Virus record (IMG/VR): IMGVR_UViG_3300041964_000072
Location: 1-64,000 of that record
Direction: 5' to 3' (one strand)
Length of the DNA: 64,000 nt
Source of the DNA: a virus
Below, piece by piece: positions 36,191-59,310 of this stretch. Made by a program: the position numbers and the translations under genes. The stretch's first letter is position 1. Each line of letters opens with the position of its first letter. The notes beneath the pieces were generated by a model. The model did no database searches, was not told the DNA's origin, and saw nothing but the letters and a program-made list of their open reading frames with translations.

Positions 36191-36589
36191 TTATTTTCTT
36201 CTTATTAGTCTAACAAGTCCTTTATTCAATGCGTATTTAACTGCCCCTAATTTTTGGGACACAGGTTTAACAACAGTATCTCGTACTGCCCTTCTTCCTG
36301 CACCAGCTTTACGTCCTAAAGGAGTGTTCCCTATTTTATTTTTTACACCAATTCCTGTTAATATAGCTGTTTGTCCTGCCCTAGTATTAGCTGCTCTATT
36401 TACCCAATAGGCTGCACCAGTACCTATTAATCCTGCTTGCAATCCTTTCTGGACATCTAATGAATAGGTTGTTTTGCCAATCTTGGCTCTAGGATTGTTT
36501 CCGTGTCCATAGTAATAAGTTTTCCCGTTGATTGTTGCACTATTGCGCCTAGAGAAAGCAGCTAAAGATTCTTGATAAGAGTATTTCAT
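36191..36589 (-). CDS. Small basic Gly-rich protein with tag motif
   Basis: Member of the scattered basic family. It starts MKYSYQESLAAFSRRNS, so an aromatic/Ser run ends in AAF then RR. A glycine-rich weakly hydrophobic segment (about 50-85) and a strongly basic C-terminus (VRLIRRK) follow. It lies between tail genes. Probably a virion-associated or ejected protein; function inferred from the family pattern. Confidence 0.6.
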   Translation of the reverse strand: MKYSYQESLAAFSRRNSATINGKTYYYGHGNNPRAKIGKTTYSLDVQKGLQAGLIGTGAAYWVNRAANTRAGQTAILTGIGVKNKIGNTPLGRKAGAGRRAVRDTVVKPVSQKLGAVKYALNKGLVRLIRRK

Positions 36590-36603
36590 AAATAATGATT
36601 AGG

Positions 36604-36780
36604 CTATCGGCTAGCCCAATCTATAATACGGTTGCCAAGTCCTATTCCAGCAAGATTTACGTTCCTACGTCTTGACTTTTTAGCACCAATGATCATTGGA
36701 GATTTCTTGAATTTCATAGGAGTGCTATTGAACCTCAAAGAACTGCTGCGACCTTTGGCAAAAGTGGAGTAATAATTCAT
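36604..36780 (-). CDS. 58-aa basic protein of the tag family
   Basis: ATG at 36780, stop TAG at 36604. It begins MNYYSTFAKGRSSS, like the S-x-F tag of its neighbours, and is very basic in the middle (KKSRRRN). It sits 6 bases after the end of the 89-aa gene. The composition and position support a real gene despite its size. Confidence 0.55.
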   Translation of the reverse strand: MNYYSTFAKGRSSSLRFNSTPMKFKKSPMIIGAKKSRRRNVNLAGIGLGNRIIDWASR

Positions 36781-36786
36781 AGGTAA

Positions 36787-37056
36787 TTACCGGAAACGAG
36801 ACAAAAATAACTTACCACGGGCAACGTCTCGTTTGAGATTTGCTTTAAGGGCACCTCTCCGTACATACGTTGCTCCCAATAATCCCGCTCCTGCGATAGC
36901 TCCCCCCACTTTGACAATATTCTTTTTCCGCTGAAGTTCTCCTGGTTTCAAATATCGGACTGTTTTGCTACCTACCCTTACTCTTTGCTTTTTGAGATCT
37001 ACCGATGCAGGACTCTTATAAAAGTCAGCGTGTGCAAGAAATTTCTTTATTAACAT
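36787..37056 (-). CDS. 89-aa basic Gly-zipper protein of the tag family
   Basis: N-terminus MLIKKFLAHADFYKS carries the ADFY form of the family tag, also found at 48.7-51.4 kb. A glycine-zipper segment (about 50-67, VKVGGAIAGAGLLGATYV) follows, then a basic C-terminus. It lies between the tail chaperone and tape measure genes. Confidence 0.6.
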   Translation of the reverse strand: MLIKKFLAHADFYKSPASVDLKKQRVRVGSKTVRYLKPGELQRKKNIVKVGGAIAGAGLLGATYVRRGALKANLKRDVARGKLFLSRFR

Positions 37057-37064
37057 AGTTCGTT

Positions 37065-37367
37065 TTATTGCGGTATTGCTCCTAAATTAAAGTTGTAGTC
37101 TTGCAAAGCCTGTTCCAAAGCATTATCATACTTAGCCCTTTCTTCATCCGGAGGTGAGGGAGATTCCTTCGGGGAATGCAGCTTGTTGCGATGTTTGATC
37201 GTAACCTCTGCCATAGCATCAATGGTTTGATAATCCAGGGTTTTGGCTAAGTCAAGGGCATTGGGATACAACTCAGTAATTAAAGCAAAATTGTAGGCAA
37301 ATCCATTTAAGCATTCATTTCGCTCACTGCTTTGTGTCGCTCCTCGATCATCTCCCCCAATATCTCG
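37065..37367 (-). CDS. Tail assembly chaperone, -1 frameshift extension (gpT-like)
   Basis: The segment is open in the -1 frame of the upstream chaperone from the slippery site to the TAA at 37065. No ATG precedes it; the only apparent start (TTG 37271) is internal. Read through the slip it adds 100 residues, giving a 233-aa fusion. The extension is helical with a Pro/Ser-rich patch, as in gpT-type domains. In lambda-like phages the G and GT forms recruit tail tube subunits onto the tape measure. Confidence 0.75.
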   Translation of the reverse strand, partial: RDIGGDDRGATQSSERNECLNGFAYNFALITELYPNALDLAKTLDYQTIDAMAEVTIKHRNKLHSPKESPSPPDEERAKYDNALEQALQDYNFNLGAIPQ

Positions 37368-37765
37368 AAAAAATCCAAACCATGTATCACACTTATATAG
37401 CTAGGTGAAAGGCTTCCGGATTCAGGTGTTGTCCATCCTGTTACCTCTGTCGTAGCATCTGTCGTTGTAATAAAGATATGCTTTAAGTCCTCAAAGTCGT
37501 GAATCTTTTCAACATCTAGAGGAATATCATCAACGGTAGGAAGAAGTTTAATTAACTGCTTAATTAGACTCCACGCTTTGCGATTTTTCTTCCTAAAAAA
37601 AGCGCCTATCGCTCCCTTTGATTCAATATATTGAGACAGAAGTTCTTTCTGCAAGTCTGCGACATCATCAAGTTTTATCCAAGCAACAGGCTTGATCATG
37701 CAAATACTTTCGTCGTTATATACAATACGAATTTTGCGCCGATCTTCTGTGAGATTAGCTGTCAT
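37307..37765 (-). CDS. Tail assembly chaperone (gpG-like)
   Basis: A 152-residue helical protein between the tail tube gene and the tape measure, which is the canonical place of gpG. Its 3' part contains T_TTT_TTC at 37367-37373 in the correct frame, 20 codons before the stop. The short form and the longer frameshifted form are both expected. Confidence 0.75.
   Translation of the reverse strand: MTANLTEDRRKIRIVYNDESICMIKPVAWIKLDDVADLQKELLSQYIESKGAIGAFFRKKNRKAWSLIKQLIKLLPTVDDIPLDVEKIHDFEDLKHIFITTTDATTEVTGWTTPESGSLSPSYISVIHGLDFFEILGEMIEERHKAVSEMNA
37367..37373 (-). promoter_or_regulatory. Programmed -1 frameshift heptamer
   Basis: GAT TTT TTC GAG in the chaperone frame gives T_TTT_TTC; slipping back one base continues TTT TTT CGA into the open -1 frame. 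The same heptamer occurs at 7563-7569 in another gene. Confidence 0.75.
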
Positions 37766-37837
37766 TTATCTGCAATAGTGAGTGACTGATGTATAGCTCA
37801 GATCTATAAATACTGAGATTATAAGTCAAAAAAGTAA

Positions 37838-38632
37838 TTAGCACACTACGCTAAAATCCGTTTCTAGAAGATCAAAAGCAGTGCATCGACCAGGAGGAGT
37901 AAGCATTGTAAACATCATTTCAAGACCCTCAGCGTTGGCATCCAAAGCATTGTTTGAAGGGTCAATCAATGCGCTTGGAACATGTAAAAGTGTGATTTTG
38001 TTGAGGGAGTTTACGAGGGCACAATCAATAACAACTTCGCCTACAAGAATCTCAGAAATTGTACTGCCTGTAATTGTTGCCGGAATAACAACAGTAACAA
38101 TTTTTCCTACTAGATTGTTACTAAATGCGATCGCTCCATCGGCACCGATCGCAAAGTTATTTAAGGTAGTTCTCCAGGTTGCATGACCTTCAAAAGTGTT
38201 TTGGGTTAGGGGAGTAATGTTACCTGTTTCACTGGTAGATGCATACGCAGTAGCATTAGCAGTGATGCCCTTACCAAGTACATTAGTTCCGGTAGCAGCG
38301 GGAATAATACCACTATCAGGTACTCGTACAATTTTTGGAATTGCCATTTGGAGGGTATCTTTCTCCATCAAATAGCCACCTTGGAAAGCAAAAAGTTCTG
38401 GCTGAACTGACGCAAAAGAAACGGACATTGTAGGCATACGACTGGTCGTATACTTACCCACCAAGACTTGCTCTCCAAGCTCAGAGCGAGACATAATATT
38501 GCGCTGTTCTTGAGGATTGTTCAAAACCATTCCGCTTGGTTTCGGGAAGTTAAATACTAGGTTATCCGCAATCCGACGAATGGAAAGATTCGAGATACCC
38601 TTGAATGATCTGTTCTGAATTAATAAGGACAT
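37838..38632 (-). CDS. Major tail tube protein
   Basis: A 264-residue strand-rich protein just upstream of the chaperone pair. It is preceded by a terminator and a fresh leader, as expected for a strongly expressed structural gene. Order in the cluster (tail terminator, tube, chaperones, tape measure) and size identify it. No sequence motif is diagnostic. Confidence 0.7.
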   Translation of the reverse strand: MSLLIQNRSFKGISNLSIRRIADNLVFNFPKPSGMVLNNPQEQRNIMSRSELGEQVLVGKYTTSRMPTMSVSFASVQPELFAFQGGYLMEKDTLQMAIPKIVRVPDSGIIPAATGTNVLGKGITANATAYASTSETGNITPLTQNTFEGHATWRTTLNNFAIGADGAIAFSNNLVGKIVTVVIPATITGSTISEILVGEVVIDCALVNSLNKITLLHVPSALIDPSNNALDANAEGLEMMFTMLTPPGRCTAFDLLETDFSVVC

Positions 38633-38685
38633 TAATGTATTCCTTGTATTAGGAAATTAGTCGATAGGCATGTCCTCCAAAAGAC

Positions 38686-38721
38686 AAAAAAAATAGGAGC
38701 CGAAGTAATACTTCTAGCTCC
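38686..38721 (-). terminator. Rho-independent terminator upstream of the tail tube gene
   Basis: On the minus strand GGAGC...GCTCC with an inner GAAGT...ACTTC stem is followed by an interrupted T9 run. It separates the head/connector transcript from the tube gene, whose own promoter would have to lie in the 53 bp beyond it or be read through. Confidence 0.75.
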
Positions 38722-38778
38722 AAACTGCCACTATAATGTCGAAATATTCAATTGTTAATACTACGTTTATTATATCTT

Positions 38779-39246
38779 TTACTCTTCTATGCTTGTCATC
38801 CAGCGTAAAAAAGGAGTGGTTTCTTGGGTAAAAGAATTATATAAAAGACGGTATTCGGTGTTCTGTGGTAACATCCTCAATTTGTAATCATAGGGCATAC
38901 ATTCTTCATCGAATTGCCAATTGATCAAAGCGTTCATCATGTGATAGTCAATAAAATTTAGTAAACCGGGGACAGCTTTTAGGTGGGGATAAGAAAGGCT
39001 ATATGTAAGTGCAATCATTGAAGTCCGTAGACTAAGATCTCGCTTGTACTGACTACTTAATCTATATAGTTTCAAAACAGGATATTCTGTTAATGGGACA
39101 TTCATGTAATCGGCAGTCATTGTAGTTCGGACTGCTAATATTCCCTTAGTCTTTAAATCTTCCGGAACAGCTTTGTTTAAATAGGTTTTTAAATATAGAG
39201 CAATCTTTTCTAAGGTTTCGTCAACAAGAATATTTGGTACTAGCAT
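38779..39246 (-). CDS. Tail terminator-like protein
   Basis: A 155-residue protein upstream of the tail tube, in the place of gpU/tail terminator genes. Its layout (short helix, strands, long Tyr/Leu-rich helices) is compatible. No firm motif; position is the evidence. Confidence 0.55.
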   Translation of the reverse strand: MLVPNILVDETLEKIALYLKTYLNKAVPEDLKTKGILAVRTTMTADYMNVPLTEYPVLKLYRLSSQYKRDLSLRTSMIALTYSLSYPHLKAVPGLLNFIDYHMMNALINWQFDEECMPYDYKLRMLPQNTEYRLLYNSFTQETTPFLRWMTSIEE

Positions 39247-39293
39247 AAATAGATTTGTTACTAGGTGTCCAAGTTTCGAGAAACAAATGAAAA

Positions 39294-39779
39294 CTAAACG
39301 GCTACGGCTATGCCATAACTCTCTGGAATTTCACTACTGGAAATATAGTCGAGGCAGAGCATTTCCATTTGATTTACCAGTATTTCATGTAGGTAAAGAA
39401 AGGGACGCAATTCGTCTTGTTCGGGAGCGTATTCTAATGATGTTCCAAAATCTAATCCTGTATCGGTATAAACTAAATAACTGTTGGCTGCATTTTCATA
39501 GATTAAGCTATCTCGTAGCGCTCCTGTGTCAATAAGCTGTTGCCCATTACGACGATTTGGAAATTTAGCAAGGTACGATTCACTAAGTTCTTTCCAGTAG
39601 TACTCCCCTGGATGAGGGTATCCCCCAGTTGAGGTAGTCGGAGATGTTAAAAATCGCTGCTCAATATCTTTTTGAAGTAATTTTACAATTGCTTTTTTTA
39701 GGGTCAGTAAGTCGATACTCTGTAATTTGGCAAGATATTCACGCTGATCGTCCAAGCCTTCAATAGTCAGTTTTAGCAT
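39294..39779 (-). CDS. Head-tail connector, virion morphogenesis protein (gp10/Mu gpG-like)
   Basis: A 161-residue protein with the LIDTGALRDSL motif (about 85-95), a hallmark of the phage virion morphogenesis / HK97-gp10-like family. A strand-rich end with ...FYLHEI follows. These proteins join the head to the tail. It overlaps the HNH-like gene by 20 bases. Confidence 0.75.
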   Translation of the reverse strand: MLKLTIEGLDDQREYLAKLQSIDLLTLKKAIVKLLQKDIEQRFLTSPTTSTGGYPHPGEYYWKELSESYLAKFPNRRNGQQLIDTGALRDSLIYENAANSYLVYTDTGLDFGTSLEYAPEQDELRPFLYLHEILVNQMEMLCLDYISSSEIPESYGIAVAV

Positions 39780-40134
39780 TACGGATTACTTGAAGTTCTG
39801 TTTCTGAGAAAGTGATGGCATCTAATAAGTCAGGTAATAAGTCAAATACAATCTTATCTTTTCGCTTGCGATTGCTTTTTCCTTCCTCCAGAAAAAGGTT
39901 GTGATAGGAAGTGAGTAAGTCCCGTCGCTTAATTTTTTCTAGGAGGGATACCGGAATAATGTGAGATAAATCCGTAGTATCGTTGAGGGACAGTGTTTTT
40001 TTAGTAACTGGACATTGATAGCGCTGTAGTCGTAACAAGAGAGCTTTAAGTTCAAAACAGGCTGTCGATTTCTTGAAACTGGCGAATTGCTGGCGATATG
40101 TTTGCTTGAATTCTGAATATTCTTCGTTGTCCAT
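39760..40134 (-). CDS. HNH-type endonuclease-like protein with tag-like start
   Basis: ATG 40134 is chosen (40146 possible). It starts MDNEEYSEFKQTYRQQ, resembling the family tag. The core has CPVTKKTLSLND, DLSHIIPVS and YHNLFLEEGKSNRKRK, an H-N-N arrangement of the HNH fold with only one Cys of the usual pairs. HNH proteins often help terminase cutting, but they usually lie near it. Here the gene lies among connector genes. Activity is uncertain. Confidence 0.55.
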   Translation of the reverse strand: MDNEEYSEFKQTYRQQFASFKKSTACFELKALLLRLQRYQCPVTKKTLSLNDTTDLSHIIPVSLLEKIKRRDLLTSYHNLFLEEGKSNRKRKDKIVFDLLPDLLDAITFSETELQVIRNAKTDY

Positions 40135-40172
40135 GACAAGCATCACTAAATGATGTTGTATTGGTCAAACAT

Positions 40173-40589
40173 TTAGAAATTATCAGTAGAACTTGCAATC
40201 GTAGTATATCCGGCAGCTCCTACTCCTCCGGCAACAGCGGCTCTACGCCCATACTTTATACCTCTTTGCTTCCAAGTTATTTTAGGGTTTGCAGCAGCTT
40301 GCATCTGTCGAGCAGTCCGAATTTTCCGGATGTTCTTAAGTCGCTTCATAGCTCCTTTGCTTGCTGTTACCGTCCTTAATCCCGTTTTAAGTTTTACTCC
40401 TCCTTGGGAGGCGAGTGTACCGACAGGAGTATTTAGTGTTCTGGCAAGATTTCTGCTACCTGTCATCCTTCCAATTTTGGTAACAGCCTTTCCCAAGAAT
40501 TGACGACCAAAGGCATATTCTGCGTACAAATCATCGGACTGAGCAATTGTGAATTCTGATAGTAAAGCGGGGGATGATAGGGGCTTCAT
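40173..40589 (-). CDS. Basic tag-family protein
   Basis: Starts MKPLSSPALLSEFTIAQSDD and continues LYAEYAFGRQF, so it holds both the LLSEF tag and a YAEY form. The middle is very basic (about 70-100), and a Gly/Ala segment lies near 115-130. It sits between the head-completion gene (1-base overlap) and the HNH-like gene. Confidence 0.6.
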   Translation of the reverse strand: MKPLSSPALLSEFTIAQSDDLYAEYAFGRQFLGKAVTKIGRMTGSRNLARTLNTPVGTLASQGGVKLKTGLRTVTASKGAMKRLKNIRKIRTARQMQAAANPKITWKQRGIKYGRRAAVAGGVGAAGYTTIASSTDNF

Positions 40590-41173
40590 TACAATGGCAT
40601 CTCCTGCCCAAGCTGTCTATTATGTGAATTGAATGGATCGTCAAAATCAATTATTTTAGGATCTAATCTCCGAGTTCCAATTACGGTGTTCGCATTAATC
40701 CCGATGTTTGGTCTTTGCCCTTGAATCTGAGTTTCCCCAGGTAGCAGGATGGCTTGAATATGCATTCGTTCCTTTGGTTCTAAGGGAAGTCCAGGGATTG
40801 CAACCGGAAGGGGATAGGTGAGGCAGCGAATGAATTGATAAGCGTCCATTCGCAGAGCAGCGACTATTGGGCTATTCGCATCCATCCCAGCGTGAGGAAA
40901 ATGCGCTACTAATAAGTCAGCTATTGTCAAATTGTCAACTATTTTTCTTAAGATAGGATGCTCAAAAGCAAGTGGTACAACATAAACCAGGCGTAAATAA
41001 ATATCGAGTAAATCTTCTGCTTCCTCCAAAATCTCGGTAAAAAATAAATCATTCACATCCTGGGAAATAAGCATTGGATTGTTTCCGCCAAAACCTCCCC
41101 CCATAAATGCGAGTCGAGATTGTAGCTTGCTTTGAATAGATTCAAGAGTTGTATAGCGAGGAATATAAGACAC
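40589..41173 (-). CDS. Head-completion/head-tail adaptor protein (gp36-like)
   Basis: A 194-residue protein with the gp36/DUF1320-like centre: EEAEDLLDIYLRLVYVVPLAF, then a helix with LTIADLLVAHFP. These connector proteins build the ring between the portal and the tail. Position downstream of the capsid genes and upstream of the gp10-like and tail terminator genes agrees. Confidence 0.65.
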   Translation of the reverse strand: MSYIPRYTTLESIQSKLQSRLAFMGGGFGGNNPMLISQDVNDLFFTEILEEAEDLLDIYLRLVYVVPLAFEHPILRKIVDNLTIADLLVAHFPHAGMDANSPIVAALRMDAYQFIRCLTYPLPVAIPGLPLEPKERMHIQAILLPGETQIQGQRPNIGINANTVIGTRRLDPKIIDFDDPFNSHNRQLGQEMPL

Positions 41174-41505
41174 TACCGAAGCAATGATTTGATACGGGAA
41201 GCCGTTTCTAAGCCATCCCTACGCTTGCGATTGGAGCCTTTATATCTTGCTCCTGTAATGTCTCTACCCAAGTTAATTAATCCTCGTAATTCTCGTACAG
41301 CCGAAGCAGTAGGCGAGACATAGTTGCGAAAGGCTTTGCTTCTTAACTCAGTTTCTCGTATACGAACAGATGTCCTAGGTTGTTGTCTATCTTGCTCTTG
41401 CTTTCTGTTTTTTAAGGCTAGACTAATTTTTTTGCGAGTGACAGGAGATTGGGAGCGTCCTCGACGCTTCTTTTTTGTAAATTCAGATAAAAGATTCATG
41501 TTCAT
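41173..41505 (-). CDS. Basic tag-family protein
   Basis: Starts MNMNLLSEFTKKKRRGRSQ, the clearest form of the tag (LLSEF then KKKRRGR). The whole 110 residues are strongly basic and Arg/Lys-rich with no membrane-like part. A DNA-packaging or internal head protein is plausible. Coupled by 1-base overlaps on both sides. Confidence 0.6.
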   Translation of the reverse strand: MNMNLLSEFTKKKRRGRSQSPVTRKKISLALKNRKQEQDRQQPRTSVRIRETELRSKAFRNYVSPTASAVRELRGLINLGRDITGARYKGSNRKRRDGLETASRIKSLLR

Positions 41506-42197
41506 TAGCGCTTCCTCTTGCGTCCATCACGGACACCCCGACGAACTCCATAGGTAGCGGCTCCAAGTATTGTTCCCTTTATCGCTCCATCAATTCCCCC
41601 AATCGCTGCGGCTGCTGGTATGACGGCTGGAATGGGGGATGCTGCTAGAGCGGATAGTGTTCCCCCTCCTACTGCTCCATACGTTGCCCCTTTCGCAATG
41701 TGACCCCCAAGGGAAAGTTTGCGCTTCCAGCTCAATCGTCCAGGCGACTGCTTTCCACGTTTACGACCTGTATCACTGCGCTTTTTCCTGAACTCAGAAA
41801 TAAGACTAGGATTTGCAGAGTAGTTTCCCCCAAGCACACCTCTTACCCTTCGTGTAACAGGTAGGTCACGCCTCCGGTTTATGGCGAGATCGGCACCAAC
41901 AGTCATAGATGCGACGGTAGCAGCAGGAAGAACAACAGCAGCGGCACGATGACTCCCTTCTCTGGTCAGTGCTTTTACAGCAGCTCTATCCCCTGCATTT
42001 TTAAAATAGTTCGGTAAGTAGCCTCTCCGGACTAATGCCCGTGAACCTAAAGCCCCTGCTGCAATCAGTCCACCACCAACCGCAATTTGAGTACCACGCT
42101 TGGCAATGCCTCCAGCAGTATTAATCGCTGTTTGATACTTGCCTCTCTTTTTTCCTTTATCTCTTCGGGTACGCCGAAATTCTGATATTGAGTTCAT
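41505..42197 (-). CDS. Basic protein made of two tag-family units
   Basis: The N-terminal half begins NSISEFRRTRRDKGKKRG, and residue about 134 onward begins LISEFRKKRSDTGRKRG; each is followed by a glycine-zipper hydrophobic stretch. The protein therefore reads as two family members fused in one chain of 230 residues. The family resemblance of the two halves supports a real shared tag. It lies beside the kinase-like genes. Confidence 0.65.
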   Translation of the reverse strand: MNSISEFRRTRRDKGKKRGKYQTAINTAGGIAKRGTQIAVGGGLIAAGALGSRALVRRGYLPNYFKNAGDRAAVKALTREGSHRAAAVVLPAATVASMTVGADLAINRRRDLPVTRRVRGVLGGNYSANPSLISEFRKKRSDTGRKRGKQSPGRLSWKRKLSLGGHIAKGATYGAVGGGTLSALAASPIPAVIPAAAAIGGIDGAIKGTILGAATYGVRRGVRDGRKRKR

Positions 42198-42454
42198 TCA
42201 TTTAGCAGTAATACTCCGGTTTTTAAATCTTCCAGTTCAGTAAAATTCTTAGTCGATTGGGAATATCGGATTAGAGAATTTTCTCTAAATTCGTCAGGAT
42301 AATAATTACAGTAGTTTTGCAAATAATCGCTCAATTGATCAAAAGGGATTTCTATAAAGGCTTTGTTTTTAATGACAAATAGTTTGTCCCTAATTACATG
42401 ATAAATGTTTTTAATAATTCCGTTTTCAACGATTGCGACTTTGACGCTCATCAA
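42194..42454 (-). CDS. 86-aa acidic-start protein of unknown function
   Basis: Small soluble protein with strand-forming N-terminus and acidic C-terminus. It overlaps the kinase-like gene by 29 bases and the tag-fusion gene by 4 bases. It may act as partner or regulator of the kinase-like protein. No domain recognised. Confidence 0.5.
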   Translation of the reverse strand: MMSVKVAIVENGIIKNIYHVIRDKLFVIKNKAFIEIPFDQLSDYLQNYCNYYPDEFRENSLIRYSQSTKNFTELEDLKTGVLLLNE

Positions 42455-43679
42455 TCCAGTCCACCATACTTTTAGCCTGATCGTAATTGTATTTATAGAT
42501 TACTTTTTTCCGCTCCAAGTTGAGCAGTGCTTGTTGTCGCTCATACGGACTGGTCTTGCTGCCTAAAGCTTGTTCAAAATAATAGTCCAGTTTTTGACTT
42601 ACCCGTTCTGGAGGTTCTTTGTCAACGATGGTTTTTAGGGTATTTTTGAAAACATTGAGGTTTCTTCGCTGCCTTGGGGTAAAGGCTTCCAGTTCATTAT
42701 CTATTGCCCCTTTTATGCCGCTGAAGTCGTTAGCAAAGTTCAGTGATTCGCCTTGATCAATCAAGGTAAAGCGTCCCTTGTTGTACCAGATGTTATCGCC
42801 ATGCATATCAAAATTTGATGTCGTTAATCCATAAGCCAATATCTTGGATAAATCTGAATTATCTAATGCAGTCCGTATTTTTTCTCCTGCTGCAAAATAC
42901 TTTCCTGTTCGTCTATCTTCTTTAGGGTTAAACTTGAAACTCACATTAAACTTCTTGTTTAATTGCCCTTTTTGGACTGCACTAAATAGGCTTTGACCCG
43001 GAAGGAATTTATGTAGAGAATAAACATTACTACTATTCGTTAAAGGATGCTTGATTCCTTTTGGAATCAGTATAGTTTCTTGAGTGCGTACTCCAACTTC
43101 TTTAGCCATGTCTGAAAGCAGCGCTTCCGTAATGGGCATATTTATATTTCGTTCATAGCCTAGTCCTAATTTTTGGGCTAGAGGTTCTTTTACTCTAAAA
43201 AGAGAAGAGGCTTTCATAACGTATCTATTCCCTAATCGATCCTTGACAACTCTAGTAAGATTTGCGGATGCAGTTAAGGAAGCATTGGATATTTCCAAGT
43301 TGTCCAAAAAGTCACTTCCTCGAATTTTGCTGTTAGGCAAATCTAGTTTTCCTTGAACCTGTTTCCAGAATCCCTGGACATTGAACGTCTTTCCTTCCCG
43401 CCTACGCTGAAAAGGTTTTATGAATATACGTTTTGTGGTTTCAACTCTCTGGGACTGTTGGATAGCCCCTTCCAATGCTAAAAGTCGTTGTTTGGAAGTA
43501 GCCTTATCAAGACTATCCCCAATAGTTTGTCTCGCCCTATTATTCAGCCTTCCTGCAACAAGACCTATAGCTTTTCGATTTCCTCTAAGAGCCTTTCGGA
43601 ATTTTTTTCTTTTTTGCTGCTGCTTGTATTTGTCTATACGTCTCTGGAAAAAATTCTTGTCCTTTCTACCCAGTATCAT
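42426..43679 (-). CDS. Kinase-fold protein (HipA/PI3K-like) in the head cluster
   Basis: A 417-residue protein. The first 100 residues are basic and helical. Then a kinase-like core follows: strand Lys YVMKAS (K156), an alpha-C-like helix with Glu185, the catalytic phrase SNFDMHGDN (D291, H293, D295, N296) and the metal-binding ID at 307-308. This is the H-x-D-N...I-D arrangement of HipA and PI3/4-kinase-like enzymes. No such enzyme is a standard head protein. It may modify virion or host proteins and could be packaged. The fold call is fairly good; the substrate is unknown. Confidence 0.6.
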   Translation of the reverse strand: MILGRKDKNFFQRRIDKYKQQQKRKKFRKALRGNRKAIGLVAGRLNNRARQTIGDSLDKATSKQRLLALEGAIQQSQRVETTKRIFIKPFQRRREGKTFNVQGFWKQVQGKLDLPNSKIRGSDFLDNLEISNASLTASANLTRVVKDRLGNRYVMKASSLFRVKEPLAQKLGLGYERNINMPITEALLSDMAKEVGVRTQETILIPKGIKHPLTNSSNVYSLHKFLPGQSLFSAVQKGQLNKKFNVSFKFNPKEDRRTGKYFAAGEKIRTALDNSDLSKILAYGLTTSNFDMHGDNIWYNKGRFTLIDQGESLNFANDFSGIKGAIDNELEAFTPRQRRNLNVFKNTLKTIVDKEPPERVSQKLDYYFEQALGSKTSPYERQQALLNLERKKVIYKYNYDQAKSMVDWIDERQSRNR

Positions 43680-43681
43680 CG

Positions 43682-44107
43682 CTACCCTCCTTTGTATAGA
43701 GGGTATTTAATAGGTAAAGGATTTCCCGTCGAAAGCCGTGCCCAGCGCTGCCGAACTGCGTTTATATCTTTTCTCGCGTATCTTCCTGTAGCCGTTAAGG
43801 TATTATCAACATAGCGCTTTGCAACACTGATTCGGCTTGGTTTGACTGTACTTACGCTTGCATTAATATTTTTTAATTGTTTTCCAGTGCGACGAATACC
43901 GCTACGCAGCCCCTTGCCACCATACTTCAAGGCAGCGAGAGACGCTGCTCCTAAAACAATGGCTTCTGCTGGATTTATTTTTGCCCAATTTTTGACTCTA
44001 GAAGTTCTGCTCTTTTTCCGATCCCAGAACATTAACTTCCTCTTTACATAGTTGCGTTTAAATTCAGCAAAATCAGGGCTGCTTAATAAAGTAATCGAAT
44101 TATCCAT
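43682..44107 (-). CDS. Basic tag-family protein
   Basis: Begins MDNSITLLSSPDFAEFKRNYVKRK, with F-A-E-F then KR. A glycine/alanine segment (about 45-75) and a basic Arg/Lys tail follow. It is next to the kinase-like gene (2-bp gap) and overlaps the 92-aa gene by 8 bp. Confidence 0.6.
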   Translation of the reverse strand: MDNSITLLSSPDFAEFKRNYVKRKLMFWDRKKSRTSRVKNWAKINPAEAIVLGAASLAALKYGGKGLRSGIRRTGKQLKNINASVSTVKPSRISVAKRYVDNTLTATGRYARKDINAVRQRWARLSTGNPLPIKYPLYKGG

Positions 44108-44378
44108 AAATTTCCTTAAGCGCTTTTCGTTTTATAGGGTTGCGTTCTCTGGAGCGCTGCTGGTATTGCACCTTTGTCGCGTAAAGCCCTCCAAGTCCTC
44201 CTGCCAAAGCTCCCCACTTAGCTGCTCGAATCGGACTACGCTTCCGGGAAAGTGCCCCTAACATTAAAACACTAGCCCCTCCACTACTACCTACAGCAGT
44301 ATTTAACAAGGTTTCTTTGGTACGCCTTGCCTTTTGTGCTTTTCGCTGTGCAAGGCTAAAAGTGGAGAGTAAATTCAC
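44100..44378 (-). CDS. Basic glycine-zipper tag-family protein
   Basis: Starts MNLLSTFSLAQRKAQKARR (LLSTF then basic). A Gly/Ser/Ala hydrophobic segment at about 26-68 contains repeated GG and GA pairs typical of a glycine zipper. The C-terminus is basic. Translationally coupled to the next gene. Confidence 0.6.
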   Translation of the reverse strand: MNLLSTFSLAQRKAQKARRTKETLLNTAVGSSGGASVLMLGALSRKRSPIRAAKWGALAGGLGGLYATKVQYQQRSRERNPIKRKALKEIYG

Positions 44379-44446
44379 AATAATAAATTTGAATAATATA
44401 GGTCAGTAAATCTAAGCTTTTACTGATTAGCGATTCAAATAAGAGA

Positions 44447-44908
44447 TTAAACCGTGACGCTACCGTTACCTACCCAGCTTTCGGAACCCTTGATTCGCTC
44501 TTTCACATCATCAATGGATTCAAAGGGCTTCTCTTTCCGCAAAGAGATAATTTTGGGGATATGCTTTTCATCAATCCCCTCGATGGTTTTCAATGTCGCC
44601 TCATCTGCTGTGTTGAGGTTGATTGCCTTTTCCTGGAGCGCTGAAGGAATGAGGTGCTGAGTTTGTTCCTGTGGCGCTACGGGGGTCAACGGCATAGTGG
44701 TGGGATCTTTTGGCAGAGCATCCACTTGATCCGGTGAGCGGACATAAAAGCGGTTTTCCCGAATTTCTTCAGGAAGGGCTTCTTTGGCATAGTCCCCAGG
44801 CAAGTATTGATTTCCGGTTTTTGGCTGCACGTAATGTTTGATTAAAACAACCGTTTCCGGAGTGGGTTCTGTTTTCTTTTCTGTGGTTGGCTGTGCTTGT
44901 TCAGGCAT
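44447..44908 (-). CDS. Helix-hairpin-helix protein next to the capsid gene
   Basis: A Pro/Glu/Thr-rich N-terminal 90 residues is followed by a ComEA-like helix-hairpin-helix unit at about 95-140 (INLNTADEATLKTIEGIDE, then KPFESIDDVKER). HhH units bind DNA backbones without sequence preference. It is the first gene after the major capsid protein. A head-DNA contact role, or a head-neck role as in some capsid operons, is possible. Confidence 0.65.
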   Translation of the reverse strand: MPEQAQPTTEKKTEPTPETVVLIKHYVQPKTGNQYLPGDYAKEALPEEIRENRFYVRSPDQVDALPKDPTTMPLTPVAPQEQTQHLIPSALQEKAINLNTADEATLKTIEGIDEKHIPKIISLRKEKPFESIDDVKERIKGSESWVGNGSVTV

Positions 44909-44974
44909 AATGGATTTGATTATTAAAAGGTTTCTACTCTTATTTTAATTGATCAAAAATTATGGAAATCCCTA

Positions 44975-45013
44975 CTATTTAGGGGTCACAGGAATACTGC
45001 AACCCCTAAATAG
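44975..45013 (-). terminator. Perfect 12-bp hairpin downstream of the capsid gene
   Basis: CTATTTAGGGGT (44975-44986) and ACCCCTAAATAG (45002-45013) form a 12-bp stem with a 15-base loop just after the capsid stop. There is no immediate T tract, so it is better read as an mRNA-stabilising, processing or attenuating element than as a strict terminator. Confidence 0.5.
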
Positions 45014-45031
45014 TTTAGTTCTAAAAAAGAT

Positions 45032-46195
45032 TTAATTAACGGTCTGAGCGTAGAGTAGCTTGGGATTCAAGAACACGGGAAGAAAAGTCATAACTGTCAA
45101 CGTCTCATCGAGTGGCGGTTGCTTTTGCTTCTCATGAGTGAGGACGTATACGCCTGTTTTTGGCATAGGCATACTGCCGTCACCAACAATAGTAGATGAG
45201 CTTTCCATAGTTACACCAATAGCTCGAATACCCGATTCTTTCTTGATAAATACAAACGTATTGTCGTTAAGGAATCTGGCATTGATGATGTTTTTGTTCT
45301 CATCTTCCAGGTTGTAGCGGTCATCCACAATCTTGATATTAGGAATTCCTCTTGCTTCAAGAATGGAATTCAACATATCAACGGATACCGTTCCTACGGA
45401 CGATCCACGCACAGAAGTCGCTGCATCTTTGGTGGATTTTTGTTGCATCAAATGGTTGTGAAGTTTCCGGGACATAACAATATAGTCCGGAGGAAAACCG
45501 TTTGTGTCTATATAATTGTCGATGGCATTGTAGAGTACTTGGATACCATTTGCATGTTCATAATCCGACCAGCGATTGAGGGTGCCGTCAGCATTTCCTT
45601 TAGCAATTAATGCTCCTGGAAAATGATTATAAGTTGCTAACGGATTCTTATAATCTAGACGTAGATTCATCTGGGTTCGAGGGTCACGACCTAAATCTAC
45701 CCCACCCGTTTGAAGCACTTGCCAAGTCATGCTGTCAGCCCGATCCATTACTGACATTACAAGCTTTTTAACACTTCCAAAAAGGAACATTGCAAGGTCA
45801 TTATTTGCACCATTGACAACATTTCCGTTTGCATCTCTCTGGTCTTGAACTGTTACACCTTTGAGGTTTGCTAGTTGCATCGCCTCGTACATTTGCCACT
45901 GCAAATTCTCATCATAGAGGCGAGAAACACCGATTTTCGCCATCTCTGCGGTGACTTTTTTGAACTCACCAAATCCGACAGTTGGAATCTCTTGTCCATA
46001 GGCAACAAGACTCGCAACAGGATTTACATCATTAGCAAGTAGTCCTAAAAAGTTACGTGAAGAGTACTCCTTTACTGGAGCAGCATCCCCCAAAACATTA
46101 GAGCGAGTACGCAATTGTACAAGTGTTTCGTCTACAATAGCGTCTGTTTGTTTAGATACGAGTCGATCGTTTAAATATGATGCAATTAATGCCAT
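45032..46195 (-). CDS. Major capsid protein (lambda gpE-like)
   Basis: MALIASYLND at 46195 is preferred over the longer open frame to 46228. The protein (387 residues) has the gpE/PF03864 character: an N-arm with FGEFKKVTAEM, the long spine helix, YEAMQLANLKGV, DRADSMTWQVLQTG, and an E-loop-like stretch around PPDYIVMSRKLHNHL. Bounded by hairpins on both sides, which fits a strongly expressed gene. No N-terminal scaffold domain is fused, so scaffolding must come from another gene. Confidence 0.8.
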   Translation of the reverse strand: MALIASYLNDRLVSKQTDAIVDETLVQLRTRSNVLGDAAPVKEYSSRNFLGLLANDVNPVASLVAYGQEIPTVGFGEFKKVTAEMAKIGVSRLYDENLQWQMYEAMQLANLKGVTVQDQRDANGNVVNGANNDLAMFLFGSVKKLVMSVMDRADSMTWQVLQTGGVDLGRDPRTQMNLRLDYKNPLATYNHFPGALIAKGNADGTLNRWSDYEHANGIQVLYNAIDNYIDTNGFPPDYIVMSRKLHNHLMQQKSTKDAATSVRGSSVGTVSVDMLNSILEARGIPNIKIVDDRYNLEDENKNIINARFLNDNTFVFIKKESGIRAIGVTMESSSTIVGDGSMPMPKTGVYVLTHEKQKQPPLDETLTVMTFLPVFLNPKLLYAQTVN

Positions 46196-46245
46196 GATTG
46201 AATAGCTTTTTGTATGTTTAAAGCGCATTCAAATCACGCTGAGAA

Positions 46246-46277
46246 TAGAGCCTTGGAAGGTTAATTCTTTGGCTCTA
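46246..46277 (-). promoter_or_regulatory. Hairpin in the capsid leader
   Basis: TAGAGCC (46246-46252) and GGCTCTA (46271-46277) form a 7-bp stem in the 116-bp gap upstream of the capsid gene. It resembles the hairpin at 47171-47202. Confidence 0.45.
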
Positions 46278-46311
46278 AACTAGGCTTTCTATCTCTAAAG
46301 AAACTGAAAAA

Positions 46312-47166: not shown

Positions 47167-47170
47167 AAGT

Positions 47171-47202
47171 TTAGAGCAAAAAAGAAGGAATTAAAGCTCT
47201 AA
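47171..47202 (-). promoter_or_regulatory. Hairpin between head genes
   Basis: TTAGAGC (47171-47177) and GCTCTAA (47196-47202) form a 7-bp stem upstream of the accessory protein gene, very like the hairpin in the capsid leader (TAGAGC core shared). Confidence 0.45.
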
Positions 47203-47236
47203 TTATTGCTTTGCCTATACTTCAATAAAAGGTGGA

Positions 47237-48268
47237 TTAATTAAGGAAACCTTGCTCTTTGTAGAGTTCCATGTTGCGACGGGCTTGCTCCTCAAGGCTG
47301 TCAGAAAACTCAGCCTCTTCATACAGTTCTGGAGATTCATGTGAAAGTTGCCCATTAGGAAAGATTTCACCACGAGAGCCGAGTACCTTTAAAGCGTACT
47401 GGATGCACATTAAATGTGTATCAATGTCCATATCGTTGGACTCAGTAGCGGCTGCAAACAGTCCGATCTTATCTCTATCAAGAGCATCAGGTAAGTCACC
47501 AAATAAAGCATCGAATTCTACAGGAAACATCAACCGTGCTTCAACCATATCTTCGGCATGTTGCACAAGTTCATCAAGCTGATCTTTTACTGCTTGTTGT
47601 ACCTGAAATTCTGCTAGTTGATTCTGTACTTCCATCAACTCGCTACGATATTGAGCGGTTTCGTCGTCTTCAACAAGGACATATTCATCCTCGTCATCGA
47701 ACTCCTCATCACCCATGTCCTCGTCATATTCTGCCTCGAATTCGTCTTCATAATCATCAGAAATCTCGAATAGATCATCGAGATATTCAATTTCATCTTC
47801 TGATTCAGCAAGATCATTACGGGCTTCAAGAGCTAAGGTTTGGAATCCGATATAAGCATCTTCATCCTCTGAAGTAGCTTCAAAGGCAGAAGCTAGTTGA
47901 TCTACCAATTCTGCATCGGGAATAACTTCACCTGTGACCAATGCCAAGATAGCTTCTGGCTCATATCCGGTAATTTCGGATAAGGCGAGGACTCCTTCCT
48001 CACTATCTTCGTATTCCTCTTCAATCAGGCTTCCTAGTGAATGCCCAAAAGCGTTAGTTGCTGTGGCAGTAAATTCGGCAATATTTAGCATAGATTCGTT
48101 AAAATTAATGTCTTCAGGAGGTATTCTTTCGTTTAAATCAGTATGGGCTTGTAGCCGATATTCTTTAGCCGACACTGCATCTAAAATACCCCTTTGCTCA
48201 GCTAAATTGATATTACTTAAAGTTGTGTTGAAAAGTTCTTGATGATATTCTGGAGAGTTGATTTCCAT
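47237..48268 (-). CDS. Acidic scaffold-like protein
   Basis: A 343-residue, extremely acidic protein; about 165-215 is nearly all Asp, Glu and Tyr. The rest is helical with coiled-coil character (about 210-250). It sits between the protease region and the capsid gene, where scaffolds lie, and scaffold proteins are typically acidic and helical. It could instead buffer the basic tag-family proteins. Confidence 0.55.
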   Translation of the reverse strand: MEINSPEYHQELFNTTLSNINLAEQRGILDAVSAKEYRLQAHTDLNERIPPEDINFNESMLNIAEFTATATNAFGHSLGSLIEEEYEDSEEGVLALSEITGYEPEAILALVTGEVIPDAELVDQLASAFEATSEDEDAYIGFQTLALEARNDLAESEDEIEYLDDLFEISDDYEDEFEAEYDEDMGDEEFDDEDEYVLVEDDETAQYRSELMEVQNQLAEFQVQQAVKDQLDELVQHAEDMVEARLMFPVEFDALFGDLPDALDRDKIGLFAAATESNDMDIDTHLMCIQYALKVLGSRGEIFPNGQLSHESPELYEEAEFSDSLEEQARRNMELYKEQGFLN

Positions 48269-48314
48269 GAATTTCCTATTAATTTAATTTTATTATAATG
48301 AAGCGCTATTTGGC

Positions 48315-48692
48315 TTATTTTGTCTTATTTTTTAGTCTTTTTCTAATCTTATTTGCTGCTGTAGCTCCTAATCCTAAGCCCAATCCAGTGATAGCTAACT
48401 TGCTTTGTAGGGGGGTATTTAGGTTTAAAGCGATTCCTTTTTTCAATGCTCTAGACTGTTTTCCAATATTGCCAACTAGTCGATTATTGAACAATTTACT
48501 CTTACTGCTATCAGCAAATTTTTTTGCAGCTCTTGGAGTTTTTGCTGAACTTAGGATTGGGATTGTTGCCCCTATACCTGCTCCGGTTAACCCACCTAAC
48601 ATTAAGTCCGAAGAGGTTTTTACTGAAGCTGGTATATTACTTTTTTTGTTATCAGACTTTCGTATAAGGCGGAACTCGGAGAGTATATGCAT
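48315..48692 (-). CDS. Basic tag-family protein
   Basis: Starts MHILSEFRLIRKSDNKKS (ILSEF then basic). A glycine-rich hydrophobic segment (about 32-48) is followed by a very basic Lys/Arg tail (KIRKRLKNKTK). It lies next to the scaffold-like gene. Confidence 0.6.
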   Translation of the reverse strand: MHILSEFRLIRKSDNKKSNIPASVKTSSDLMLGGLTGAGIGATIPILSSAKTPRAAKKFADSSKSKLFNNRLVGNIGKQSRALKKGIALNLNTPLQSKLAITGLGLGLGATAANKIRKRLKNKTK

Positions 48693-48746
48693 GGGGAAAG
48701 TAGATGTGTTATAGAAAAAATCAAACCTTAACCATATCTTTTGAAA

Positions 48747-49265
48747 TTACTTTTTTTGATACATCTTTGCTTTCTTGGCTGCTTCTCTTTGTGCCCGTTT
48801 TGCTGCGGCTTCAGCCTTCTTCTGTTTATTATTCTTGCTCAATAGGGAAGTAGAAGATTTCTTACTGGACGCTGGTGCTACCACGGCTACCGTTGGCTTA
48901 GCTGATGGTGTAGGTTTAGGGGCACCCATAACCATGTTCCAGCCTTTATTCCCCATTGGAGTATTCATAGGAACAGTTCCACCAGGACTGTTACCGAAAG
49001 TCATGTTCCAACCCTTGTTACCTCCCATAGGGACAGTAATAGGAGTTGGAGGAGCCGCTTTTTTGGCTCTCCGACCTATCTTAGAAAGCGCTCCTAAAAT
49101 AGCACCTCTATTTCTGTAGCCTAATGCACCGACTCCGGCTACTCCTCCTACGACACCAGCAGCAGTTATACCTTTGCGAACAGCACGTTTACGTTTATCT
49201 TTCGATCCTTTGCGCCGAAAAAAGTCTGCGTAGGAATCAGAGTATGAGTAAGTTAAGTCAGCCAT
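48747..49265 (-). CDS. Tag-family protein with GWN repeats
   Basis: ATG at 49265 is preferred to 49295. The start YSYSDSYADFFRRKG gives the ADF tag, then a basic arm and a glycine-zipper segment (about 33-58). Two copies of the G-N-K-G-W-N motif (about 80-91 and 104-114) follow in a Pro-rich stretch, and the C-terminus is Lys/Ala-rich. About residues 49-70 match the 137-aa neighbour closely (YRNRGAILGALSKIGRRAK), so the two are paralogues. Confidence 0.65.
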   Translation of the reverse strand: MADLTYSYSDSYADFFRRKGSKDKRKRAVRKGITAAGVVGGVAGVGALGYRNRGAILGALSKIGRRAKKAAPPTPITVPMGGNKGWNMTFGNSPGGTVPMNTPMGNKGWNMVMGAPKPTPSAKPTVAVVAPASSKKSSTSLLSKNNKQKKAEAAAKRAQREAAKKAKMYQKK

Positions 49266-49336
49266 AATTGCAGTGAATAAATTAATGTATGTCACTACAA
49301 TCTAAGAATTAGTGAAATATGTTTTCTAACTAAGTT

Positions 49337-49750
49337 TTATCGTCCCATCGTGACATTCCAGCCACGATTGCCCATCATGTTATTCATAGATGTAGAAGGT
49401 CTTGCCCCTCCCATTGAAACATTCCATCCTTTAGATCCCATCATTGTATTTGTGGAAGTAGATGGAGGATTTCCACTGGTTCTGTTACTGGGCTTCCCAC
49501 TGATATTAACGTTAGATTTTTTGGAGCCTTTCTTACCTCTTTTCATAGCGTTTCTTGCCTTCCGACCAAGCTTAGAAAGGGCACCAGAAATAGCGCCTCT
49601 ATTTTTATAAGCGGCAACTCCGGCAAGTCCAGCTAATGCACCACCACCAGCGATCCCTACCCCTGTTCGGATATTCCGATTTCTGCGCTGCTTGTCTCTG
49701 GCTCCTTTGGTACGGTAAAAATCTGCGTATGCGTCTGCGTAAGTATACAT
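49337..49750 (-). CDS. Tag-family protein with GWN repeats, paralogue of the neighbour
   Basis: Starts MYTYADAYADFYRTKGARDK. A glycine-zipper (about 29-58), basic core and Ser-rich linker follow, with two M-G-x-K/R-G-W-N copies at about 103-114 and 125-136; the second is the very C-terminus. The zipper block is a clear paralogue of that in the 48747-49265 gene. Confidence 0.65.
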   Translation of the reverse strand: MYTYADAYADFYRTKGARDKQRRNRNIRTGVGIAGGGALAGLAGVAAYKNRGAISGALSKLGRKARNAMKRGKKGSKKSNVNISGKPSNRTSGNPPSTSTNTMMGSKGWNVSMGGARPSTSMNNMMGNRGWNVTMGR

Positions 49751-49815
49751 AAGTGATTGTGTGAATAGGTTGATGAATTAATCTAATGGTTGTTATTTAT
49801 CCAAAGGGAATTGTT

Positions 49816-51414
49816 TTATTCCAAGTTTTTATTTTTCTTAGGTCTACCTCGCTTCTTTTTAGGAGCAGGAGCGGGAGCGGGAGGAGTTCCCATAGTGGTA
49901 TTCCATCCACGACTACCCATTTGCATAGGAGCGGGTGCTGGTGTGGCAACAGCTATTGGCTTGGAAGGTGCCCTAGCTGGAGTAGGTGCTGCTGGGGGTT
50001 TACCCATAGTCATGTTCCATCCCCGATTGCCCATAGCCGTAGGAGCGGGAGGCGCTACTGGAGATTGCCCCATATTTACGTTCCAGCCTTTATTCCCCAT
50101 AGCTGTAGGAGTGGCGGGAGCGAGAGCAGCAGGAGCAGCGGGGTTAGCTCTTATTTTGCGTCCTCTTCCAGATGGAGTGCTTTTCTTGCCTCTCAATAAC
50201 TGTTTTCCTCGTACAAGGTCTTTTCGGAGGGTTCGATTAGCCTGGAATCCACCCCCCTTTACTGCATTCGCACCAGCTCCAAGCGAACCAAGTACCCCTG
50301 TCCCCGACTTCCTTGCACCTTGAAAACCTGTTTTTGCTAGTCCTGCTGATTTTGCGATCGCTTTACCAATCCCGTAGCGACCTCCAAGACCGATCGCAGC
50401 AGCTCCCAGTCCTACACCAGCAGCTACTTTTGCAGCATTGCCTACAACACTACTTTTTTTCCTCCGCTGCCACGGAAACTCATAGAAGTCTGCATAATAC
50501 AGATCTTCGATTTCATCCATTGTGAAAGCGGCTAAGACTTGATCATTTTGAGAGAATCTTCCTTGATATGCCATAGGTGAGGGAGGTTGGTTTATAGGGG
50601 TTTGCATCTGTTGTTGCATTTCCTGCTCATAATCAGCATCTCTTTGCAAGGGAAGGTATTCGGGTAGAGTTTCTTGGAATTCGTTTAGCACTTGTTGGTA
50701 GTAGATTTCTCTGCTTTGTCCTTGCAATTCTTGATCAGAGAGATTAGTAATGTTATCTACTACGTCATATAAAGTGTCTAGTAGTTTATGACCTTCCTCC
50801 CTCATCCCATCAAGCTCAGCAGATTCGGCAAGAGCGTCTGATAAAGTCAGTGCGCTCATAAAGTGGGCTAACTGCTCCTTACGCCTGGAAAATAGAGTTG
50901 CTTGAGATAATGCGCCAATCCCTACCAAAGATAACTCTCTGATAACATTTTGGGCAAAATCTACACCACAAGATACTGTTTTTCCAATACCATTTTTAAG
51001 TTTTTGTATTACGGCAGGGTCTTTGATTTTGGCAGCATTACAGAAGATTCCATAACGTCCGATTAAATTTTTTAATTTAGGCTTTTGAGCGACATCATAT
51101 TCATTGATAATCCTAGCTTCCAATGGTTCATCAATAATGCCGACAGCGCTATCAATATCTTTCTGATGTTCCTTAAAAATACTGATGTCGGATTCTTCAA
51201 GAAATTCATTTGTATTCTCTACTATTTCTTGAATATCATCAGCAGTTACAATCCAAGTCCTACCTTTAGAATCCTTGTGTCCGACATCATCGCTTTCATA
51301 AAAAATAAGACCTGACTGGACAAGTTCTTCAGGACTTTCTTCAACAGTAGTAGCAAATGAGGCGCATTGTAATGGTTGTATTTGGGCTACGGGGACGTGT
51401 CTTCGTTTTGCCAT
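49816..51414 (-). CDS. Mu I-like prohead protease fused to basic DNA-binding-like tail
   Basis: Residues about 35-175 fit the phage I-type protease: GRTWIVTADDIQEIV, a catalytic His in KEHQKDID (H83), and the strand KTVSCGVD...LSLVGIGAL. A helical linker holds the ADFY tag at 308-311. The last 215 residues are basic and Gly/Ala/Pro-rich with three G-W-N motifs (439-449, 461-471, 499-509) and an AT-hook-like RGRPKK near 522-527. Such a tail is not normal for a protease or its scaffold. It suggests that the protease is packaged or that the tail is cleaved off. It may also process neighbours sharing the same motifs. Confidence 0.65.
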   Translation of the reverse strand: MAKRRHVPVAQIQPLQCASFATTVEESPEELVQSGLIFYESDDVGHKDSKGRTWIVTADDIQEIVENTNEFLEESDISIFKEHQKDIDSAVGIIDEPLEARIINEYDVAQKPKLKNLIGRYGIFCNAAKIKDPAVIQKLKNGIGKTVSCGVDFAQNVIRELSLVGIGALSQATLFSRRKEQLAHFMSALTLSDALAESAELDGMREEGHKLLDTLYDVVDNITNLSDQELQGQSREIYYQQVLNEFQETLPEYLPLQRDADYEQEMQQQMQTPINQPPSPMAYQGRFSQNDQVLAAFTMDEIEDLYYADFYEFPWQRRKKSSVVGNAAKVAAGVGLGAAAIGLGGRYGIGKAIAKSAGLAKTGFQGARKSGTGVLGSLGAGANAVKGGGFQANRTLRKDLVRGKQLLRGKKSTPSGRGRKIRANPAAPAALAPATPTAMGNKGWNVNMGQSPVAPPAPTAMGNRGWNMTMGKPPAAPTPARAPSKPIAVATPAPAPMQMGSRGWNTTMGTPPAPAPAPKKKRGRPKKNKNLE

Positions 51415-59266: not shown

Positions 59267-59310
59267 TAAAAAGGGACAAGAATCCCCTTTCAAAACACAG
59301 GTTTTTTATG

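What the first reader, a model, noticed from the sequence alone, without database searches (positions are those of the whole stretch)
36191..51414. Scattered family of small basic glycine-zipper proteins sharing an (L/I/Y)-(S/A)-(E/D)-F tag
About a dozen genes between the head and tail genes begin with, or contain, the same kind of short tag followed by Lys/Arg: LLSEF (40589, 41505), ISEF (42197, twice), ILSEF (48692), FAEF (44107), YADF (49265, 49750, 51414 internal) and ADFY (37056). Most then have a Gly/Ala-rich hydrophobic zipper and a basic tail. T4 marks its internal head proteins with a short N-terminal capsid-targeting sequence ending near an (L/I)-x-E cleavage site, and L-S-E/F fits that form. 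Seen: tag, zipper, basic tail, positions. Inferred: a packaged or ejected protein set, perhaps forming a channel in the thylakoid-rich host envelope. I know of no described family with this pattern.
Basis: partly seen in the sequence, partly recalled or inferred. Interest (0 to 1): 0.9.

Follow-up and report, generated by a model that had tools for sequence, protein, structure and literature searches.

The report
Processing code for cyanophage head proteins
A large, probably cyanobacterial, virus marks about a dozen small basic proteins, its assembly scaffold and its own capsid-maturing protease with the same short (Ala/Ser)-x-Phe tag, which looks like the recognition site that lets the protease load and trim a cargo of proteins inside the virus head.

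Summary
All 11 strongly basic proteins there carry the looser [AS]xF tag near the N-terminus, against 1 of 13 others.

The interpretation needs correcting. In relatives (Pseudanabaena phages PA-SR01 and Pam2, and two IMG/VR lineages) the Glu is not kept (ANF, ASF, AQF, ADF); Ala/Ser and Phe are. This is therefore not a T4-type (L/I)-x-E site. The same [AS]xF recurs at a position invariant in the scaffold across all lineages (A-x-F-S), in the protease, and at module boundaries in relatives where the genes are fused into polyproteins. Gene 49816-51414 encodes the prohead protease, by homology and fold.

Best reading: [AS]xF is the load-and-cleave signal of this phage group's prohead protease. 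It marks a set of basic, mostly glycine-zipper, internal head proteins and the acidic scaffold. It would work like the T4 and phiKZ/SPN3US systems with Phe in place of Glu at P1. Cleavage and packaging are inferred; no virion proteomics could be read. A membrane channel is not supported beyond hydrophobic Gly-rich stretches.

The parts
36191..36589 (-). basic internal-head candidate, 132 aa, tag LAAF at 36554-36565
   Evidence: net +22, tag residues 9-12; Gly/Ala stretch GLIGTGAAYW
36604..36780 (-). basic candidate, 58 aa, tag YSTF at 36760-36771
   Evidence: net +12
36787..37056 (-). basic candidate, 89 aa, tag HADF at 37021-37032, Gly zipper GGAIAGAGLLGA
39760..40146 (-). HNH-like protein with tag YSEF at 40108-40119
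   Evidence: (HNH_4, E 0.1, below cut-off)
40173..40589 (-). basic candidate, 138 aa, tag LSEF at 40551-40562
   Evidence: tagged genes also lie just before the gp36-like adaptor gene in the relatives
41173..41505 (-). basic candidate, 110 aa, tag LSEF at 41479-41490
   Evidence: net +22, no clear Gly zipper
41505..42197 (-). two-module basic Gly-zipper protein, 230 aa: ISEF at 42177-42188 and again at 41790-41801, each followed by a similar Arg/Lys-rich stretch (RRTRRDKGKKRGK, RKKRSDTGRKRGK)
43682..44107 (-). basic candidate, 141 aa, tag FAEF at 44060-44071
44100..44378 (-). basic Gly-zipper candidate, 92 aa, tag LSTF at 44358-44369
45032..46228 (-). major capsid protein (lambda E-like); no tag
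   Evidence: phrog_29 4e-26, Phage_cap_E; 32% to PA-SR01 MCP
47237..48268 (-). acidic scaffold candidate (net -78, gene two upstream of the MCP) with several AxF sites, among them EAEF|S at 47306-47317 and LAEF at 47606-47617
   Evidence: A319-x-F321-S322 invariant over 7 sequences of the window and the relative lineages; net charge
48315..48692 (-). basic candidate, 125 aa, tag LSEF at 48672-48683
   Evidence: sequence and tag; not in the table because a longer overlapping ORF on the other strand was chosen there
48747..49295 (-). basic Gly-zipper protein (ATG at 49265), tag YADF at 49221-49232, two MG-x-x-GWN repeats
49337..49750 (-). basic Gly-zipper protein, 137 aa, tag YADF at 49718-49729, two MG-x-x-GWN repeats
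49816..51414 (-). prohead protease (about residues 30-170; candidate catalytic His83, Ser148) fused to a tagged Gly-zipper module; CASF 51355-51366, LAHF 50860-50871, YADF 50485-50496, three GWN repeats
   Evidence: homolog of PA-SR01 'Mu-like prophage I protein'; phrog_976 head maturation protease for relatives; fold match to viral capsid maturation proteases; H83, S148, F20 invariant
51421..53064 (-). 547-aa protein with basic N-terminus and Gly zipper but no [AS]xF tag at its start

Best explanation
The tag (Ala/Ser)-x-Phe is the recognition signal of this phage's prohead protease. The scaffold (acidic), the protease and a dozen small basic proteins carry it, so they are gathered into the assembling prohead. 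Once the shell is complete the protease is activated and cuts after the Phe: the scaffold and the short N-terminal propeptides are chopped and leave, and the basic, mostly glycine-zipper proteins stay inside with the DNA and are probably delivered with it. In relatives the cargo is fused into polyproteins, and the same sites would release the modules. Shown: tag, its statistics, its conservation, the protease identity, the association of tag with basic charge, and tag-bounded modules. Inferred: cleavage, the exact bond, packaging and ejection.
For: 1) Tag enrichment and its near-perfect link to the basic proteins. 2) In the scaffold the site A-x-F-S is invariant over the window and all relative lineages (AEFS, ANFS, ASFS) and a second site keeps its Phe with S/A/G at P3, while the scaffolds share only 26-31% identity with the window's. 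3) The protease carries an aligned Phe (Phe20) before its domain, in [AS]xF in five of six sequences, a site after the domain (AHF/ANF/ASF; missing in L050) and one near the C-terminus in PA-SR01 and L050, or before the added module in the window. 4) In PA-SR01, Pam2 and IMG/VR relatives single ORFs hold several internal tags, each before a new module; the module QDPATIQ... follows at least six unrelated sequences, with similarity starting at the tag; sharp similarity boundaries fall at tags 18/77 against 8.3 expected, p=0.001. 5) Eleven Gly-zipper modules from two relative lineages share an invariant tag Phe. 6) Gene 49816 is a prohead protease by homology and fold. 7) Known precedents use the same layout and a P3-x-P1 rule (PMC5694885, PMC10052503).
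Against: No peptide data for the window or a relative could be read. No [AS]xF tag begins the 547-aa zipper gene 51421-53064. The L049/L050 head genes taken whole show only weak [AS]xF excess (27 vs 22.5 and 29 vs 24.1 expected). A first, looser junction test was negative (13/74 vs 10.2). In the relatives' capsid protein an A-[DE]-F motif sits 2-3 residues from the end in the L008/L050 type, where cutting would do little, so the motif may also be a docking site. Phe at P1 is not known to me for this protease fold.
Confidence: 0.66

Rival explanations
1. The tag is a docking (capsid- or scaffold-binding) motif that loads proteins into the prohead but is not itself cut.
For: Tags sit at extreme N-termini, where a cut removes only about 5-25 residues; an A-[DE]-F motif lies almost at the C-terminus of the capsid protein in some relatives.
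Against: Several sites per scaffold, sites flanking the protease domain, and one site per module in fused polyproteins fit cutting better than docking.
Confidence: 0.17
2. The basic glycine-zipper proteins are part of the temporary assembly core and are digested and expelled, rather than being kept and delivered to the cell. (A variant of the best explanation: same tag and protease, different fate of the cargo.)
For: Their genes flank the acidic scaffold (net -78) and would pair with it electrostatically; the sites allow cutting.
Against: Modules between tags are long and keep Gly-zipper patterns over lineages, and most window proteins have no internal sites, unlike the scaffold.
Confidence: 0.25
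3. The genes are recent paralogs and the tag is only inherited sequence with no role.
For: 49337 and 48747 are clearly related to each other and to the end of 49816 (shared GWN repeats).
Against: The other proteins are not alike outside the tag, the tag codons differ, and unrelated proteins (scaffold, protease, HNH-like) carry it.
Confidence: 0.05
4. The proteins form a channel or pore in the host membrane, as ejected or lysis-related proteins.
For: Gly/Ala-rich stretches with hydropathy of about 1.2-1.75 in several proteins; a low-confidence all-helical model of a related module.
Against: Hydropathy is borderline, the model is poor (pLDDT 59), and the phage has a long-tail module with a tape measure. 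Compatible with, not exclusive of, the best explanation.
Confidence: 0.15

Closest known systems
T4 internal proteins (IPI, IPIII, Alt) with capsid targeting sequence and protease gp21
   Same: short N-terminal signal shared by otherwise unlike, basic, packaged proteins; signal tied to the prohead protease and acidic core
   Different: T4 and its analogues cut after Glu (PMC5694885); here Glu is not conserved and Phe is; lambda E-like capsid; no sequence relation found
phiKZ / 201phi2-1 / SPN3US head processing (S/A/G-x-E or A-x-E)
   Same: P3 small residue, free P2, fixed P1; many head and ejected proteins processed; several sites per propeptide; protease processes itself (PMC5694885, PMC10052503)
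   Different: P1 Phe instead of Glu; small Gly-zipper cargo; siphovirus-type capsid and tail genes; propeptides mostly much shorter
Mu I protein / phrog_976 head maturation proteases
   Same: protease followed by a scaffold-like region in one protein; phrog_976 matches the relatives' proteases
   Different: here a tagged Gly-zipper module is fused on, and a separate acidic scaffold gene exists
Pseudanabaena phages PA-SR01 and Pam2
   Same: same gene order, homologous capsid, scaffold and protease, same [AS]xF sites
   Different: cargo fused into few polyproteins with KSANF-type tags; window has mostly one gene per module; MCP only about 32% identical

Membership tests
T4 capsid-targeting sequence / internal proteins | short shared N-terminal signal on otherwise unlike basic head proteins | tested here: met
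   11 of 11 strongly basic proteins tagged (with 48315-48692)
T4 capsid-targeting sequence / internal proteins | cleavage site with Glu at P1, (L/I)-x-E | tested here: not met
   Glu replaced by N, S, Q, D, T, A, H in relatives and within the window, Phe kept
T4 capsid-targeting sequence / internal proteins | proteins found in virions and ejected | not testable with these tools
Prohead (capsid maturation) protease | sequence or fold relation to known head maturation proteases | tested here: met
   relatives match phrog_976, best 4.9e-8; window model matches BFVD capsid maturation proteases, e.g. 3.6 A over 146 columns; window protein itself has no direct HMM hit and no PDB match
Prohead (capsid maturation) protease | conserved catalytic His and Ser | tested here: met
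   H83 and S148 invariant over 6 sequences; assignment as catalytic is inferred
Prohead (capsid maturation) protease | proteolytic activity at [AS]xF | not testable with these tools
   needs biochemistry
Pfam glycine-zipper families | score above the curated cut-off | tested here: not met
   only Gly-zipper_Omp 23.8 bits against cut-off 25, in one PA-SR01 protein; none for the window proteins scanned

The most novel reading that the evidence does not exclude
A previously undescribed prohead processing code with Phe at P1, (Ala/Ser)-x-Phe, that also serves as a recombination boundary: glycine-zipper cargo modules are shuffled between genes at the cleavage tags, giving either free-standing tagged proteins (window) or polyproteins cut inside the head (PA-SR01 group), to arm the head with an exchangeable set of injected proteins.
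Probability: 0.42. Interest if true: 0.78.

Novelty: new variant of a known kind. Interest (0 to 1): 0.62.

Why it matters
It would give a readable sequence rule for finding which unknown proteins of this phage group are packaged and processed, in phages where most head genes are unnamed; it would widen the known specificity of prohead proteases from Glu to Phe; and it offers a likely packaging signal for carrying foreign proteins in a cyanophage head. Mass-spectrometry data on Pam2 already exist and could test it directly.

Tried and rejected
T4-type (L/I)-x-E cleavage after Glu: rejected, Glu not conserved. Chance: rejected. Near relatives of the window itself in IMG/VR by MCP: none. Cellular homologs by MCP in genome contigs: none. 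PDB sequence and fold search of the protease: no match, but viral predicted structures match. First BLAST-based junction test: negative (13/74 vs 10.2), because low-identity alignments ran through the boundaries; a stricter ungapped test with a redefined window gave 18/77 vs 8.3, p=0.001, though many of those boundaries look like simple indels and several rows are the same module counted at slightly different positions. Unbiased pair scan: A.F ranks 8th of about 2000 gapped pairs over four genomes (G...G is first), so it is among, not alone at, the top. AlphaFold of a Gly-zipper module: low confidence (pLDDT 59), not used further. [AS]xF in Nodularia phage kac65v151: no enrichment (24 vs 26.5), so the code is not general to cyanophages.
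Full report
Setting. The window is bases 1-64000 of a 132,738-base virus record. The capsid protein at 45032-46228 is lambda E-like, TerL is at 57710-59293, a likely tape measure at 28847-35641 (by length and position). The nearest isolates are Pseudanabaena phages PA-SR01 and Pam2, with capsid proteins about 32% identical. The host of the window phage is not known; a cyanobacterium is likely from these relatives.

Observation. All listed tags exist, and four more N-terminal ones were missed. The table lists ten small proteins with net charge of at least +13 per 100 residues, all with [AS]xF within the first 25 residues; the eleventh, 48315-48692 (MHILSEF...), was left out of that automatic table because a longer overlapping ORF on the other strand was chosen. 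Of the other 13 genes only the HNH-like one has an N-terminal tag of that spacing, apart from CASF at residues 17-20 of the protease, which the 11-against-1 count did not score; scoring it would make the comparison 11/11 against 2/13. The scaffold candidate is extremely acidic (net -78). About 8 of the 11 have a clear Gly/Ala-rich stretch. Tag codons vary synonymously.

Relatives. Scans of IMG/VR gave about 30 PA-SR01-type loci and a further lineage (L008/L048, L049, L050) with capsid proteins about 56% identical to PA-SR01 and 36% to the window. The loci read in full keep the order protease, module genes, scaffold, capsid-adjacent gene, capsid. In PA-SR01, Pam2 and their kin the module genes are long ORFs with repeated internal tags such as IRKSANF, RKAANF, KAEF and RKSASF, each starting a new module. 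L049 and L050 have DTAQF, DTANF, IASF, KYSNF, MADF. So the constant part is Ala/Ser, any residue, Phe; Glu or Asp in the middle is a habit of the window phage.

Why a processing site. First, it occurs where prohead proteases are expected to cut: the scaffold (A319-x-F321-S322 invariant over seven sequences, the relatives sharing only 26-31% identity with the window's; a second invariant Phe271 preceded two residues before by A, S or G) and the protease itself, before and after the catalytic domain. Second, one tag stands before each module whether the module is a gene of its own or part of a fusion. Third, the module QDPATIQRLIQ... follows at least six unrelated sequences, ending in KSANF, KAANF or AVA(D/E)F, with similarity starting at the tag; over all sharp similarity boundaries, 18 of 77 lie at tags against 8.3 expected. 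A looser test was negative, so this line is supportive, not decisive. Fourth, the enzyme is there: gene 49816-51414 is homologous to the PA-SR01 protein that its authors matched by HHpred to Mu protein I (PMC10286775); five of six aligned homologs match phrog_976, head maturation protease, best 4.9e-8; the AlphaFold model of the window's own domain (core pLDDT mostly 70-92) matches viral capsid maturation proteases, for example S-CBWM1 peptidase at 3.6 A over 146 columns; His83 and Ser148 are invariant.

Comparison. T4, phiKZ, 201phi2-1 and SPN3US proteases all cut after Glu, with rules such as A-x-E or S/A/G-x-E (PMC5694885; PMC10052503), and T4 internal proteins are diverse with only the targeting sequence conserved (PMC3012670). 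The present system has the same architecture and the same P3-x-P1 logic with Phe as the fixed last residue. It works like those systems but is not a member of the T4 family, since the Glu feature was tested and not met.

Limits. Cutting, its exact bond, packaging and ejection are inferred. The [AS]xF excess over all head genes of L049 and L050 is weak. The A-[DE]-F near the capsid C-terminus in relatives may mean docking as well. The channel idea rests only on borderline hydropathy and a poor model.

Verdict. A real, conserved, protein-level signal; most likely a load-and-cleave tag of a prohead protease with a new specificity. New variant of a known kind.

Noticed in passing
48747-49295, 49337-49750, 49816-51414: Seven copies of a short repeat MG(N/S/G)(K/R)GWN(M/V/T)xMG in three neighbouring proteins; not found in the fetched relatives. 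Role unknown.
   Followed up: partly
L062 (Nodularia phage vB_NspS-kac65v151), 8801-23394: Its head genes, including a named prohead scaffold/peptidase, lack [AS]xF enrichment but show [AVLI][DE]F 21 times against 5.7 expected (0 of 500 shuffles) and three LF-x-NL N-termini: perhaps a second, different Phe-type code. Motif chosen after looking.
   Followed up: partly
42426-43679: 417-aa basic protein with NFDMHGDNIWYNKGRFTLIDQG, reminiscent of a kinase-like catalytic loop; no Pfam hit above cut-off; no N-terminal tag. Could be a packaged kinase-like enzyme.
   Followed up: no
39760-40146: HNH-like protein (HNH_4, E 0.1) with a YSEF tag among the neck genes; possibly a packaged nuclease.
   Followed up: no
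L008:970-2139, L049:10001-11173, L050:10001-11170, L002:18813-20063: Capsid protein C-termini of relatives end in or near NLADF/HLEDF/NVADF/NLAEF; the window capsid protein lacks this.
   Followed up: partly
ON014754.1 2064-3905 (L003 start): A Pam2 gene is labelled 'botulinum neurotoxin type B' in the record, among structural genes; very probably an annotation artefact, not examined.
   Followed up: no
44447-44908: Helix-hairpin-helix protein next to the capsid gene, apparently conserved at the same place in relatives.
   Followed up: no
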